From Planctomycetaceae bacterium (lineage in GTDB: Bacteria > Planctomycetota > Planctomycetia > Planctomycetales > Planctomycetaceae), in contig JABURQ010000203.1 of the NCBI GenBank assembly GCA_014762625.1, positions 1-64,000 on the forward strand: a DNA stretch of 64,000 nt, read 5' to 3'. Below the pieces are notes generated by a model. The model searched no databases. It saw nothing but the letters and a program-made list of their open reading frames with translations, and was not told where the DNA came from. Of the stretch, positions 21,919 to 28,742 are shown piece after piece (position 1 is the stretch's first letter; the number at the start of each line of letters is the position of its first letter). A program made the translations under genes and the position numbers.

Positions 21919-23598
21919 ATGCTGCCAGGCTCCACCAGTCAACCACAGACCGATCAGACGGCAACGGAATGCGTGCATTGCGGATTTTCGATCGATCAAG
22001 CTGCGTCCTTCGAACGTTGCCCGCGCTGCTGGCGTCCACTCCCTCTCGAAAGTCCGACAGAAGGCTCTGCCTCACCGCAAGAGTTGATCTTTGCAGAAGC
22101 AGCGCCGGAAGAGAGTCTCGATGAGACTCCTGCCTGGCTGATCGCGGTTCCCGGCGAAGAGGAAGTCCTGACGGACGAGGATCCCTCTCGCTTGAAACGC
22201 TGGCTGGCAGGATACGGCGCGTCGTTTCTGGTGCACAGCATCCTCATGATCGCTCTGGCCTTGATCGTCTATCAGGTGCAAGTGTTTCAATGGCACGACG
22301 CCATTCAATCCTCCATGACGGACGGCGTGGATGTGCTGGGGCAATCGGGCGGACTCGAATTGATGAAACCGGTTGATTTCCAGATCAAGACCGCGCACGA
22401 TCCCGAATCATTGACCAACGCCGCCTATCAGGCGACCAACGTTCCGAATGCCGGCCAGGGCGGAACCGCGACCGGCTCGGGAGATGGTGGCATCGGTTTT
22501 TTCGGAACCCGCGCCAAGGGGGATTCGTTCGCCTTCGTGGTCGATATCTCCGGCAGTATGAACGGCGAATTCAAGGCAATGGATCCCCAGAACGCCGGGG
22601 CCACTCGAATCATCTCACGTTGGGACAAAGCTCGCGAAGAACTGATCGCCGCCATCGACTCCATGACCGAGGACCAGTCCTACTGTGTCGTGTTGTACAA
22701 TAATAATCACCTGCCGATGATCGAGCGCGGCGAGGCGGTGGGGCTGCGCAAAGCCTCGCCCGCCAATAAACGAGAGACGAAACTCTGGCTCGAACGGATG
22801 AGCGCCTACGGCGGAACCAATCCTCAGGAATCGCTCGCCTTTGCGCTGGAGTTGCATCCCGATGTGCTCTACTTCCTGACCGACGGCGCGATTCCGCCCG
22901 ATTCGAGAGATGTGGCGGCGGCGTTCACTGACGGAAAAACCGTCATCCATACCACCTGCATCGGTTATCCGCAGAACGACATTCTGCAACTGATTGCCGC
23001 CGATCATCGCGGTCAGTTTCGTGCCGTCACACCCCAAGGAGATTCCGCAACTCCGAGCGGGGTCTCGCTGATCCTCTTCGTCCGGAGAGCCGGCTCACAA
23101 CGGCAAAAAACATTACGACTCGAAAAAGACTACGAACGGCTGGTCGAATGGATTGAGGATCCCGATATCGACTTTCAACAACCAAACACACACACCCTGC
23201 TCCTGCTGCACAATGGGATCTCCTCCGTTCCGGAGTTCAACGTCGAACTGCTCAAATTCGTGCGGAGCCTGAACACGGAAGGGGTCCAGGGCTTCCAGCG
23301 TTCCCTCCGTGGCGGCTTGCTGGGTGTCGAAGTTCCGCTCGATCCTGAACGACGATTGACCGAGCCTGCTGAGATTGAAGCGGCCCGGAAAAAGCTGTTG
23401 CGCGTGAATCAGATTCTGAAAACGGCGGTTTCGGAATCCGACTATGATTCCTACGAGCATCACGTGCGGGCCATTTACCTGTTCGGCGACGTCGAAGCGA
23501 AAGCGGAACTGACGGCCGCCCTCGAAGTGTTCGATCTTTACAACGGCTCTCAGATCCAGATCATCGACGGCGACCAGTTCGTCCGCGAGAACCGCTGA
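21919..23598 (+). CDS. Zinc-ribbon / membrane helix / VWA-domain protein
   Basis: A 559-residue protein. The N-terminus is a cytoplasmic zinc ribbon with CVHC (18-21) and CPRC (34-37). One membrane helix follows (about 100-120), then a Gly-rich linker, then a von Willebrand A domain beginning at FAFVVDISGSM (about 204-214), whose DxSxS MIDAS motif (Asp209) binds a divalent metal. The domain continues through YGGTNPQESL and YFLTDG; the last 200 residues are not recognised. The membrane helix contains Ser102-x3-His106, the spacing seen in TonB and TolA helices that engage ExbB/ExbD-type motors. The VWA protein of the operon at 46.4 kb has the same motif. The gene stands alone and has no clear Shine-Dalgarno site. 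Confidence 0.8.
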   Translation: MLPGSTSQPQTDQTATECVHCGFSIDQAASFERCPRCWRPLPLESPTEGSASPQELIFAEAAPEESLDETPAWLIAVPGEEEVLTDEDPSRLKRWLAGYGASFLVHSILMIALALIVYQVQVFQWHDAIQSSMTDGVDVLGQSGGLELMKPVDFQIKTAHDPESLTNAAYQATNVPNAGQGGTATGSGDGGIGFFGTRAKGDSFAFVVDISGSMNGEFKAMDPQNAGATRIISRWDKAREELIAAIDSMTEDQSYCVVLYNNNHLPMIERGEAVGLRKASPANKRETKLWLERMSAYGGTNPQESLAFALELHPDVLYFLTDGAIPPDSRDVAAAFTDGKTVIHTTCIGYPQNDILQLIAADHRGQFRAVTPQGDSATPSGVSLILFVRRAGSQRQKTLRLEKDYERLVEWIEDPDIDFQQPNTHTLLLLHNGISSVPEFNVELLKFVRSLNTEGVQGFQRSLRGGLLGVEVPLDPERRLTEPAEIEAARKKLLRVNQILKTAVSESDYDSYEHHVRAIYLFGDVEAKAELTAALEVFDLYNGSQIQIIDGDQFVRENR

Positions 23599-25075: not shown

Positions 25076-25423
25076 ATGCGCAAAACCCTCTTTCTGCTGT
25101 TCACTCTCATCCTCGTCGGTATGCTGGCGGTCACGACACGGGCCTTCCTCCAGGAAGGGATCTTCGCACAGGGAGCGAAACTGTGGCCGCTGTGGTGGTT
25201 TCGAGCCACTCTCGCCGACGCCTATTTCGGCTTCCTCACCTTCTATGCCTGGGTGTATTACAAAGAATCCTCAGCCCTCTCACGTCTCGGCTGGTTGGTG
25301 TTGATCGGCTGTCTCGGGAATATCGCCATGGCGATCTACATGCTCCGGCGGCTGTGGAAGCTGGAAAGCGATCATCCCGCGGAATTACTGCTCCGCCCCG
25401 AACATCGACAGCACCCTCTCTGA
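25076..25423 (+). CDS. Small membrane protein (DUF1475-like)
   Basis: A 115-residue membrane protein with three hydrophobic helices: about 5-25 (N-terminal), 38-60 (WFRATLADAYFGFLTFYAW) and 70-92. The middle helix, with its ATLADAYFGFLTFY pattern and the following WVYYKE, matches my memory of the DUF1475 family found in bacteria and plants, whose function is unknown. The tail is polar. GGAG lies 8 bases before the ATG. It is isolated between the repeat-rich region and the VIT-VWA gene, and the 255 bases after it show nothing I can name. Confidence 0.65.
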   Translation: MRKTLFLLFTLILVGMLAVTTRAFLQEGIFAQGAKLWPLWWFRATLADAYFGFLTFYAWVYYKESSALSRLGWLVLIGCLGNIAMAIYMLRRLWKLESDHPAELLLRPEHRQHPL

Positions 25424-25678
25424 ACCGGCTTCATTTTCTCAAGTCCTTTCGTGATCTCAGGTTCCACACCCCAACGCTCCCGATTTCAGAATTCTATCCC
25501 AAAACGGCGTGAGAATTATTTAGCGTTCTCGCCTGATATCCCATGGCGAACACGATCAGGTCGGATGGAACGCCGGCCGGCGAGAAAGTCCTCCTGTTGT
25601 GGTGCTTTCTGATTCCTGCAGACCGATCGATCGCGAATCGCATGAAAAATTCAAAACCTGTTCAAGGAGATTCATGCT

Positions 25679-27832
25679 ATGTGGAACACCATCAAAACCT
25701 CAGTATTGGCTCGATCCTGCCTGATTCCTGCCCTCATCTGCACCGTTGGTCTGACGGTTATGAATTCCGAGGCCGATGCCTCGGGAATGCTCATCGCGGA
25801 TGGAGGCTTCGGTGGAGTTCTCACGATCGAGGAACATTCCGCGAAAGTGACCATCAACAACGGTATCGCGGTCACCGAAGTGACTCAGGTCTTTCGCAAC
25901 ACAGAAAATCGCCAGGTCGAAGCCTTGTATCTGTTCCCCGTGCCGAAAAACGCCTCGGTCGCGAATTTCAGTATGTGGATTAACGGCAAGGAGATGGTGG
26001 GTGAAGTTCTGGAGAAGAAACGAGCTCGCGAAATCTATAACAGCTACAAACGACGACGTCGCGATCCGGGCTTACTGGAACAAGTCGACTACAAAAATTT
26101 CGAGATGCGAATTTTCCCCATCGGTCCTCAAGCCGAGCAGCGGGTCCAGATTGCCTACTATCAGGAACTCGATTATGACCATGACTGGGCCAGCTACGTC
26201 TACCCCCTGGCGACCGCTCCACGACCGGGACTGAATGCGAAGACGGAAGGCAAATTTGCGCTCACCATGCAGATCAAATCTGAAGTGCCTCTCCTGGAGA
26301 TTGAAAGCAGCAGCCATCCCGACGACTTCGTCTTCGTCAAACATACCGACAAGTATTACGAAGCAAGTCTCGAAACCGACGGTGGGGACCTGAACCGCGA
26401 TCTGGTGCTGGCGTATCACGCTTCGCGCCCGCATACCGGACTCGATCTGGTAACGTCAAAACCGGAAAACGAGGACGGATATTTTCAACTCACCTTAACG
26501 GCGGGAGAAGAACTGGCCCAACAGGACATCGGCATGGATTACGTGTTCGTCCTCGATATCTCGGGAAGCATGGCCCACGACGGAAAGCTGCGCGTTTCCC
26601 GCGAGTCGATCGGAGCGTTCGTCTCCGAACTCGGACCGGACGATCAGTACGAAGTCATCACCTTCAACATGGCTGCCGAGACCTTGTTCGGCGGGCTACA
26701 ACCGATCTCGCCTGAGAATCAGGCCGAGGCGTTGCGTTACCTCGAATCGCAACAGGGACGCGGCGGAACTCGATTGCGTCCCGCCGTCAAAGCCGCCTAT
26801 GCCTACGGCGATCCCGACCGTCCCCTGAACGTCGTCATTTTGAGCGACGGGATGACAGAACAGAATGAACAGCGTGAACTGCTGGCGTTGATCAACGAAC
26901 GCCCCGCGCAGGCTCGCGTGTTCTGTATTGGGGTCGGCAACGAGGTCAATCGTCCGCTGCTCTCGCAACTCGCCGAAGGGGCGGGGGGACTCTCCGCTTT
27001 TCTGTCACGAGGGGACAATTTTGAACGGCAGGCAAAGGCTTTCCGCCGTAAGTTGATGCGACCGGCGGCCGCTAATTTGAAAATTGAAATCGACGGGGCG
27101 GATGTCTACGACGTCGAACCTCGACAACTTCCCGATCTGTATCACGGCATGCCGTTACGAATCTACGGACGCTATCGGAATCCGGGGATCGCCCAGGTAA
27201 CCGTCAACGCGGAAATTAACGGAGCCCCGCTCGAGCAACAGGTCGAGATGACTTTCCCGAAGACCGACCAGGGAAATCCGGAGATCGAACGGATGTGGGC
27301 TTCACGAAAAGTGGAGCGCCTGCTGAAAGAAGCCGACCGCTCCGGTTCCCGGAGCCCCGTGATTGGAGAAATCGTCCGGCTCGGAGAAACGTATTCGATT
27401 GTGACGGAGTATACGTCGTTTCTCGTGTTGGAAAATGACGCCGAGTATCGACGCTGGAAGATCGATCGTCGGAACCTGCAACGGATCAGGCGCGATCGAC
27501 GCAGTCAGCAACAGGTCGAAGCGGAGCTGGCGGAATTGAGAGAACGAGCGATGTCGGAACTGGGGCCGAAATTGGCAGACGCCGAAAAACAATCGGCTCA
27601 GCCGGTCTCGCGTCCCACATCGTCCTCTCCCACTCGGACTACTCCAAGCTCGAGTCAGCCATCGTCACGTCCCTCTTCCACTCCTTCTCCGTCCCCGAGA
27701 CCTTCCCGCAACCGGGATATCTCCTTCGGTGGCGGTGGCGGCGGAGCCATCGATCCGATCACGGGAACGTTGGGATTGTTACTGGCGGGATGCGGCTTTG
27801 CAGCCCGTCGTCGACGCAAGGACGAGGAGTGA
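25679..27832 (+). CDS. VIT-VWA surface protein with GlyGly-CTERM-like tail
   Basis: A 717-residue secreted protein built like inter-alpha-trypsin inhibitor heavy chains. A signal peptide (to about residue 35) is followed by a VIT domain (about 40-170, with VTQVFRNTENRQVEALY and FPVP) and a VWA domain (about 287-460) with an intact MIDAS motif DISGSM (293-298). A beta-rich part and a charged helix come next (about 590-650). Then a Ser/Pro/Thr-rich stalk (about 655-680), six glycines (684-689), a short hydrophobic stretch (about 694-709) and RRRRK end the chain. Glycine run, hydrophobic helix and Arg cluster make up a GlyGly-CTERM-type sorting tail cleaved by rhombosortases. The next gene encodes such a protease 3 bases downstream. 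AAGGAG lies 10 bases before the start. Confidence 0.88.
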   Translation: MWNTIKTSVLARSCLIPALICTVGLTVMNSEADASGMLIADGGFGGVLTIEEHSAKVTINNGIAVTEVTQVFRNTENRQVEALYLFPVPKNASVANFSMWINGKEMVGEVLEKKRAREIYNSYKRRRRDPGLLEQVDYKNFEMRIFPIGPQAEQRVQIAYYQELDYDHDWASYVYPLATAPRPGLNAKTEGKFALTMQIKSEVPLLEIESSSHPDDFVFVKHTDKYYEASLETDGGDLNRDLVLAYHASRPHTGLDLVTSKPENEDGYFQLTLTAGEELAQQDIGMDYVFVLDISGSMAHDGKLRVSRESIGAFVSELGPDDQYEVITFNMAAETLFGGLQPISPENQAEALRYLESQQGRGGTRLRPAVKAAYAYGDPDRPLNVVILSDGMTEQNEQRELLALINERPAQARVFCIGVGNEVNRPLLSQLAEGAGGLSAFLSRGDNFERQAKAFRRKLMRPAAANLKIEIDGADVYDVEPRQLPDLYHGMPLRIYGRYRNPGIAQVTVNAEINGAPLEQQVEMTFPKTDQGNPEIERMWASRKVERLLKEADRSGSRSPVIGEIVRLGETYSIVTEYTSFLVLENDAEYRRWKIDRRNLQRIRRDRRSQQQVEAELAELRERAMSELGPKLADAEKQSAQPVSRPTSSSPTRTTPSSSQPSSRPSSTPSPSPRPSRNRDISFGGGGGGAIDPITGTLGLLLAGCGFAARRRRKDEE

Positions 27833-27835
27833 CCG

Positions 27836-28516
27836 ATGATGGAATTCGCCAGGCGAATTTGGACGGCCGTCCCAGGGAGAGAGATCGTTCTCTCCCTGGG
27901 CCTGGCCCTGTTCACAGGTGTGATTGCCGTCGTTCCCGGACTGTCGGAGTCTTTGCAGTTCGATCGGTCTGCGGTCGCCGGAGGAGAAATCTGGCGTCTT
28001 TTGACCGGTCACTTCTGCCATTGGAACGTCGATCATCTGTTCTGGGACCTGAGCATGTTTCTGGTCCTGGGAACGATACTGGAGCGGGACGAACGTCCGC
28101 GGATGTGGCTTTGTCTGGGACTTTGCTTCGCGTCGATCGTCCCCGCGATTGCAATTTGGATGCCTGAATTTCAGACGTACCGAGGCTTATCGGGCATCGA
28201 TTCCGGTCTGTTCATCCTGTTGATGACCCTCATCCTCAAAGAGAACTGGAACAGTTCGAAACCGATCCTGGTGGGAGGAGCGTTTCTGGGGATGGCGGGA
28301 TTGGCGGCGAAAACTCTGTATGAAATGAAAACGGGGGCTACGCTATTTGTCGATCACGAAGCTGCCGGTATGATCCCGATCCCGCTTTCTCATTTGGCCG
28401 GCGGAATCGCGGGACTGCTGGCCGGGATGTGGCCAATTCGAGAAGTAGAGTTAAAAACGTATTTCTCAAAAGACAATCTGCTCATTTCCGCTTGGAACGG
28501 ACGAGATGCACGATGA
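27836..28516 (+). CDS. Rhombosortase-type rhomboid protease
   Basis: A 226-residue membrane serine protease with about six helices. Rhomboid hallmarks are present: GEIWRLLTGHFCHWNVDHLFWDL (about 50-72, read in two parts), the catalytic serine in GLSG (Ser119) and the catalytic histidine in PLSHLAGG (His186). The WRLLTGH...H.N..H pattern and YRGLSGIDSGLF resemble rhombosortases, which cleave GlyGly-CTERM tails, more than housekeeping GlpG-type enzymes. The substrate is most likely the preceding VIT-VWA protein. GAGGAG within that gene's last codons serves the start, only 3 bases after its stop, so the pair should be made together. The 3' end overlaps a convergent gene by 35 bases. Confidence 0.82.
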   Translation: MMEFARRIWTAVPGREIVLSLGLALFTGVIAVVPGLSESLQFDRSAVAGGEIWRLLTGHFCHWNVDHLFWDLSMFLVLGTILERDERPRMWLCLGLCFASIVPAIAIWMPEFQTYRGLSGIDSGLFILLMTLILKENWNSSKPILVGGAFLGMAGLAAKTLYEMKTGATLFVDHEAAGMIPIPLSHLAGGIAGLLAGMWPIREVELKTYFSKDNLLISAWNGRDAR

Positions 28517-28742
28517 TCATGGCGGAACCGATAAAGAATCCCAACAGCATGACGATCAATCGACCGAGAGCTTGCCCTCGTCGTTCGGCGGAAGAGGAGG
28601 CTTCCATCGGAACGAAATTCATGATGATGTTCGACATCACCGCGCTGAAGATGACGATCAGTCCCCATTGCCAGAGCGCGATCTTTTTCAGGCGATCCAT
28701 CCCCGTTTCTTCGGGAGCTATTTTCTTTTTCTTCTTCCCCAT
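28482..28742 (-). CDS. Small two-helix membrane protein
   Basis: An 86-residue protein of unknown function. A very basic N-terminus (MGKKKKK) is followed by two hydrophobic helices, about residues 26-46 and 62-80, and a basic tail. The charge pattern places both ends in the cytoplasm. Its stop lies inside the last 35 bases of the convergent rhombosortase gene. The gene for a KaiC-like ATPase lies 27 bases upstream on the same strand, so the two may be co-transcribed. Confidence 0.6.
   Translation of the reverse strand: MGKKKKKIAPEETGMDRLKKIALWQWGLIVIFSAVMSNIIMNFVPMEASSSAERRGQALGRLIVMLLGFFIGSAMIIVHLVRSKRK

What the first reader, a model, noticed from the sequence alone, without database searches (positions are those of the whole stretch)
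25679..28516. VIT-VWA surface protein paired with its own rhombosortase
The sequence shows a VIT-VWA protein with an intact MIDAS motif, a Ser/Pro stalk, six glycines, a short hydrophobic helix and RRRRK. Only 3 bases later comes a rhomboid protease with Ser119/His186 and rhombosortase-like segments. Established knowledge: GlyGly-CTERM tails are processed by rhombosortases, and in marine proteobacteria related VIT-VWA proteins pair with a sortase. Inference: here a dedicated rhombosortase replaces the sortase for one client, so the pair could be a minimal display or release system for a calcium-dependent adhesin. I do not know of a description of this pairing in planctomycetes.
Basis: partly seen in the sequence, partly recalled or inferred. 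Interest (0 to 1): 0.75.

Follow-up and report, generated by a model that had tools for sequence, protein, structure and literature searches.

The report
Surface protein with dedicated rhombosortase gene
A planctomycete gene for a VIT-VWA surface protein with a glycine-arginine tail sits directly before the gene for the membrane protease predicted to cut that tail; the pair is real and widespread in Planctomycetota and Verrucomicrobiota, but this kind of one-client pairing was already published in 2011.

Summary
A 717-aa VIT-VWA protein (complete MIDAS, disordered Ser/Pro stalk, GGGGGGAIDP, hydrophobic helix, RRRRK) is followed 3 bases later by a rhomboid that scores 118.7 bits on the rhombosortase model (cut-off 84), against 26.9 of 250 for GlpG. 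It is the only rhombosortase and the only clear tail of this type in the genome. The pair is conserved: 24 of 30 above-cut-off rhombosortases in about 390 Planctomycetota genomes have the VIT-VWA gene upstream (a 25th is split between contigs), as do 73 of 80 named loci. The module is patchy: two congeners have a clean empty site. The idea is not new: Haft & Varghese (2011) described dedicated one-client pairs, listed the planctomycete Rhodopirellula baltica, and showed VIT-VWA proteins with GlyGly-CTERM, LPXTG or PEP-CTERM tails. Possibly new: most VIT-VWA-paired rhombosortases carry Ser/Thr/Cys where nearly all described ones have His; tails share GGGA[ILF]DP; a divergent sigma-54 activator gene flanks 36 of 83 testable cassettes, though not this one. 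Most likely mechanism: cleavage in the glycine run, with the ectodomain kept, probably lipid-linked, on the envelope. The calcium-dependent adhesin role remains a guess.

The parts
25679..27832 (+). VIT-VWA protein, 717 aa: signal-peptide-like N-terminus, VIT (aa 50-160), VWA with full MIDAS (aa 289-448), disordered Ser/Pro stalk (about aa 640-691), C-terminal tail
27734..27829 (+). GlyGly-CTERM-like tail: glycine run, AIDP, hydrophobic helix, RRRRKDEE
   Evidence: TIGR03867; profile of other genomes' tails, E = 8.5e-12; GGG invariant in 27 homologues
27836..28516 (+). rhombosortase, 226 aa, Ser119/His186 dyad, loop YRGLSGIDSGLF
   Evidence: TIGR03902 118.7 bits; invariant S119, H186, K159, E163; GlpG-like predicted fold
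25424..28481 (.). cassette segment missing from two congeners, where the flanking genes (25076-25423 and 28482-28742) are adjacent

Best explanation
This is a dedicated (one client, one enzyme) rhombosortase system. The VIT-VWA protein is exported by Sec and held in the inner membrane by its C-terminal helix. The neighbouring rhombosortase recognises the GGGGGGA(I)DP junction and cuts in or next to the glycine run with Ser119/His186. The freed C-terminus is then probably joined to an ethanolamine-containing lipid, as for VesB in V. cholerae, so that the ITIH-like ectodomain stays on the envelope on a flexible Ser/Pro stalk and may be carried over the outer membrane by a type II secretion-like machine. 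Shown here: gene identities, tail, adjacency, one-to-one conservation, single client. Inferred from the V. cholerae system: cleavage site, lipid transfer, secretion route. Guessed: the metal-dependent binding role.
For: The enzyme is over the rhombosortase cut-off and far below GlpG. The pair is conserved across Planctomycetota, Verrucomicrobiota, Lentisphaerota, Kiritimatiellota, Acidobacteriota and some Proteobacteria. Tail matches with E < 1e-4 in the 392-genome survey come only from genomes with a rhombosortase match, and those checked end the adjacent VIT-VWA protein. The window genome has no second clear tail. Enzyme and client divergence correlate over 31 pairs (Spearman 0.39, Mantel p 0.004). 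Genes overlap or nearly abut in many pairs. Experimental precedent: RssP cleaves VesB at G383 and the new C-terminus carries glycerophosphoethanolamine (PMC6219818, PMC11389362); GlyGly-CTERM plus RssP suffices for membrane association (PMC13393428).
Against: No experiment on any planctomycete member is known to me or was found. The residue four after the catalytic Ser is Ser123 rather than the His of 'virtually all' rhombosortases described in 2011, so specificity or chemistry may differ. TIGR03501 is not hit. GspD-like and GspE-like matches in the genome stay below the curated cut-offs, so a complete type II machine is not proven.
Confidence: 0.82

Rival explanations
1. Release rather than display: the rhomboid cuts the tail and water, not a lipid, resolves the acyl-enzyme, so the VIT-VWA ectodomain is shed as a soluble protein.
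For: Rhomboids normally hydrolyse; VesB with its tail cut by GlpG, and VesC after autoproteolysis, are released. Ser123 replaces the usual His, so transfer chemistry may be lost.
Against: In the one studied rhombosortase the product stays on the surface with a lipid-like C-terminal moiety; sister VIT-VWA lineages use other sorting enzymes (sortase, exosortase) instead.
Confidence: 0.25
2. The tail is only a transmembrane stop anchor and the adjacent rhomboid acts on other substrates.
For: Cleavage has not been shown in any planctomycete; the tail scores below the cut-off of TIGR03867 in one of two search modes.
Against: Tail and protease are coupled in about 100 loci, while the inspected VIT-VWA homologues of other subfamilies in relatives lack the tail.
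Confidence: 0.05
3. On origin, not function: the pair arrived in the window's species as a pre-formed cassette by horizontal transfer, as against loss in the two congeners.
For: Clean empty site in two congeners; closest VIT-VWA relatives (56-66% identity) lie in other families and classes; only one other of 36 sampled family members has a pair, of a different subfamily.
Against: No compositional difference (GC 0.558 against 0.549) and no flanking repeats; loss cannot be excluded.
Confidence: 0.5

Closest known systems
GlyGly-CTERM / rhombosortase dedicated pairs (Haft & Varghese 2011, PMC3237569; TIGR03902, TIGR03501/TIGR03867)
   Same: Adjacent target and rhombosortase with a single target in the genome; listed for Rhodopirellula baltica SH 1 and Opitutus terrae; VIT-VWA ('vault') homologues with GlyGly-CTERM shown in their Fig. 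3C; Rhodopirellula and Opitutaceae relatives have VIT-VWA pairs here (L165, L141).
   Different: Loop SGIDS instead of SGMLH; tail GGGA[ILF]DP not recognised by TIGR03501; much wider distribution seen here.
Vibrio cholerae RssP-VesB
   Same: Ser-His rhombosortase, glycine-helix-basic tail, client exported by Sec.
   Different: RssP has six clients, mostly hydrolases; here there is one VIT-VWA client encoded next door.
Marine proteobacterial sortase target (TIGR03788) with its dedicated sortase (TIGR03784)
   Same: VIT-VWA client, one-to-one cassette; a second cassette subfamily (Rhodopirellula L165) scores 526.6 of 551.65 on this model.
   Different: The window protein scores only 262.7, has no LPXTG-type tail and no sortase neighbour.
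Inter-alpha-trypsin inhibitor heavy chain H1 (PDB 6fpy)
   Same: Predicted VIT-VWA ectodomain fold matches over about 590 columns, E = 1e-37.
   Different: Animal serum protein; no membrane tail or rhomboid.

Membership tests
rhombosortase (TIGR03902) | score over the curated cut-off of 84 bits | tested here: met
   118.7 bits, 119.7 in genome search
rhombosortase (TIGR03902) | Ser-His catalytic dyad in TM4/TM6 | tested here: met
   S119 and H186 invariant in 34 homologues; rhomboid fold by model
rhombosortase (TIGR03902) | His four residues after the catalytic Ser (SGMLH; 'virtually all' rhombosortases; a discriminating trait, not the formal definition) | tested here: not met
   Ser123 here; among 31 VIT-VWA pairs found by model search S 19, T 3, C 4, N 1, H 3, Y 1; trait
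GlyGly-CTERM | tripartite Gly-rich motif, hydrophobic helix, basic cluster at the extreme C-terminus | tested here: met
   sequence; helix 693-716
GlyGly-CTERM | match to general model TIGR03501 | tested here: not met
   no hit at E <= 10; two HMMs for variant forms exist beside it
GlyGly-CTERM | match to variant model TIGR03867 over 19.7 bits | tested here: inconclusive
   15.4 bits, 21.6 bits
GlyGly-CTERM | co-occurrence with rhombosortase in the genome | tested here: met
rhombosortase pathway | cleavage at the glycines and C-terminal lipid adduct | not testable with these tools
   needs mass spectrometry
rhombosortase pathway | type II secretion system in the same genome | tested here: inconclusive
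   GspE-like up to 620.1 of 630.25 bits, GspD-like pieces up to 221.7 of 351.35
marine sortase target TIGR03788 | score over 551.65 bits and adjacent sortase | tested here: not met
   262.7 bits; neighbours are a DUF1475 protein and an 86-aa protein

The most novel reading that the evidence does not exclude
VIT-VWA-dedicated rhombosortases form a distinct enzyme class of Planctomycetota, Verrucomicrobiota and scattered other phyla: a SG[IL]D(S/T/C) active-site loop without the usual His, a cognate GGGA[ILF]DP tail, and in many lineages a divergently transcribed sigma-54 activator that switches the cassette on. Its cleavage or transfer chemistry could differ from that of RssP.
Probability: 0.4. 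Interest if true: 0.5.

Novelty: new member of a known kind. Interest (0 to 1): 0.36.

Why it matters
Planctomycete cell-surface display is poorly known. One enzyme with one adjacent client, conserved over phyla, is a simple test case for whether rhombosortases anchor or release proteins. The Ser/Thr-for-His change at a position credited with rhombosortase specificity could be tested directly. The sigma-54 activator next to many cassettes suggests regulated display.

Tried and rejected
First genome-contig scan with P0002 alone found nothing; an alignment query worked. A co-variation between the enzyme loop (SGxD) and the tail residue (GGGA.D) was looked at and dropped: Opitutaceae and other Verrucomicrobiota enzymes with SGIDS pair with tails such as ALPP, ALER or ALRP, and related sequences confound the count. 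The sigma-54 activator as a strict cassette part was rejected: the same regulator family sits beside other genes in genomes without the cassette and is absent from the window's genome at E 1e-20. A generic GlpG-like identity was rejected. Paper searches for VIT-VWA plus rhomboid, sortase or Planctomycetes found no relevant paper beyond the 2011 one. R. baltica's listed pair (GI 32476015/32476016) could not be opened here; that its client is a VIT-VWA protein is inferred from Rhodopirellula sp. MED661 and Rubripirellula (L165, L172, L196).

Full report
What is there. The window encodes a 717-aa VIT-VWA protein (25679-27832) and, 3 bases downstream, a 226-aa rhomboid (27836-28516). Pfam gives VIT 112.5 bits and VWA_3 66.1 bits. 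The rhomboid scores 118.7 bits on the rhombosortase model TIGR03902 (cut-off 84) and 26.9 of 250 on GlpG. AlphaFold gives a confident rhomboid fold (mean pLDDT 88.5) whose solved matches are GlpG structures, and a VIT-VWA ectodomain like inter-alpha-inhibitor heavy chain 1 (E about 1e-37), with a disordered segment at about 640-691 and a C-terminal helix 693-716.

Not chance. A tail profile built from other genomes finds this tail at E = 8.5e-12, with the next window frame at 0.014. In the genome, TIGR03902 has one hit over cut-off, TIGR03867 one, and the tail profile one strong hit (1.1e-12).

Conservation. In the sampled phylum (392 genomes) 30 matches exceed the TIGR03902 cut-off. In 24 the gene upstream is a VIT-VWA gene with a Gly-rich, hydrophobic, mostly basic tail; in one of these (G398) a small gene intervenes. 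In a further one (G171) the pair is split between two contigs. Five have other or no recognisable clients, among them lipoprotein-like proteins with a tail. Among 80 named loci found by the enzyme motif, 73 have the VIT-VWA gene upstream; six of the other seven are cut at a contig end close to the enzyme gene, and the seventh (L190) shows a short frame ending in GGGPIGP and a basic tail, also near a contig end. Some named loci are the same contigs as phylum-survey genomes. Hosts are Planctomycetota, Verrucomicrobiota, Lentisphaerota, Kiritimatiellota, Acidobacteriota, Elusimicrobiota, Desulfobacterota-type and Proteobacteria records, many of them metagenome bins whose labels may be wrong. VIT-VWA sequences of cassettes fall into at least three well-separated groups; one, with Rhodopirellula, nearly reaches the sortase-target model TIGR03788 (526.6 of 551.65). 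Enzyme and client distances correlate.

Patchiness. Both congeners lack the pair, and there the genes at 25076-25423 and 28482-28742 lie next to each other, so segment 25424-28481 is an insertion here or a loss there. Composition gives no hint of recent transfer. The rhombosortase reading frame overlaps the 3' end of the convergent gene by 35 bases.

How it likely works. For V. cholerae, RssP cleaves VesB at Gly383, and the new end carries ethanolamine or glycerophosphoethanolamine; the protein stays at the surface after type II secretion (PMC6219818, PMC11389362, PMC13393428). The same order of export, intramembrane cut at the glycines and lipid-linked display is the best model here. The Pro after GGGA(I/L/F)D could serve as a helix-kinking residue of the kind the VesB tail needs (inference). 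Type II-like ATPases and secretin pieces occur in the genome but below curated cut-offs.

What differs. In SO_2504 the motif is SGMLH, and His at that place is found in virtually all rhombosortases of the 2011 study. Here it is SGIDS. Among 31 VIT-VWA pairs found without using this motif the residue is S 19, T 3, C 4, N 1, H 3, Y 1; the larger named set was selected by the motif and is not independent. A divergent sigma-54 activator (PF00158) lies directly upstream of 36 of 83 testable cassettes. In the 392 genomes the activator and the pair co-occur (20 of 29 against 23 of 363, Fisher p 3e-15, not corrected for relatedness). Sites resembling -24/-12 promoters with at least 9 of 10 matches occur in 13 of 85 upstream regions against 0.8 expected from base shuffles. 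The window has neither the activator nor such a site.

Novelty. Haft & Varghese (2011) already reported adjacency in one-client genomes, a planctomycete and a verrucomicrobial example, and VIT-VWA proteins with three kinds of sorting tail. The finding is therefore a new member of a known kind, with a possible subclass on top.

Noticed in passing
L124:970-2592 (minus) and 35 other cassette loci: A sigma-54 activator of about 510 aa with no receiver domain found (N-terminal NPFLPERIELER region, GAFTGA motif) is encoded divergently, mostly 10-220 bases upstream of the VIT-VWA gene; promoter-like -24/-12 sites are enriched there. No description was found.
   Followed up: partly
L100 (G236), L103 (G370), L110 (G386), L116 (G071): Rhombosortase next to a roughly 310-360 aa protein (some with a lipoprotein-like N-terminus) that ends in a Gly-rich tail, hydrophobic stretch and Arg cluster: a second kind of one-client pair in Planctomycetota, possibly the known rhombotarget lipoprotein type.
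   Followed up: no
window 21919-23598 +: A 559-aa protein with an N-terminal zinc-ribbon-like segment, a membrane helix and a divergent VWA domain with DISGSM, 2 kb upstream of the cassette; not part of it.
   Followed up: no
window 28482-28516: The rhombosortase reading frame overlaps the 3' end of the convergent 86-aa gene by 35 bases, consistent with insertion at that gene's end.
   Followed up: partly
L117 (G368, second rhombosortase-like match): A genome with two rhombosortase-like genes: one paired with VIT-VWA, the other downstream of a long frame ending in a glycine run, PVDPF and a basic tail.
   Followed up: no
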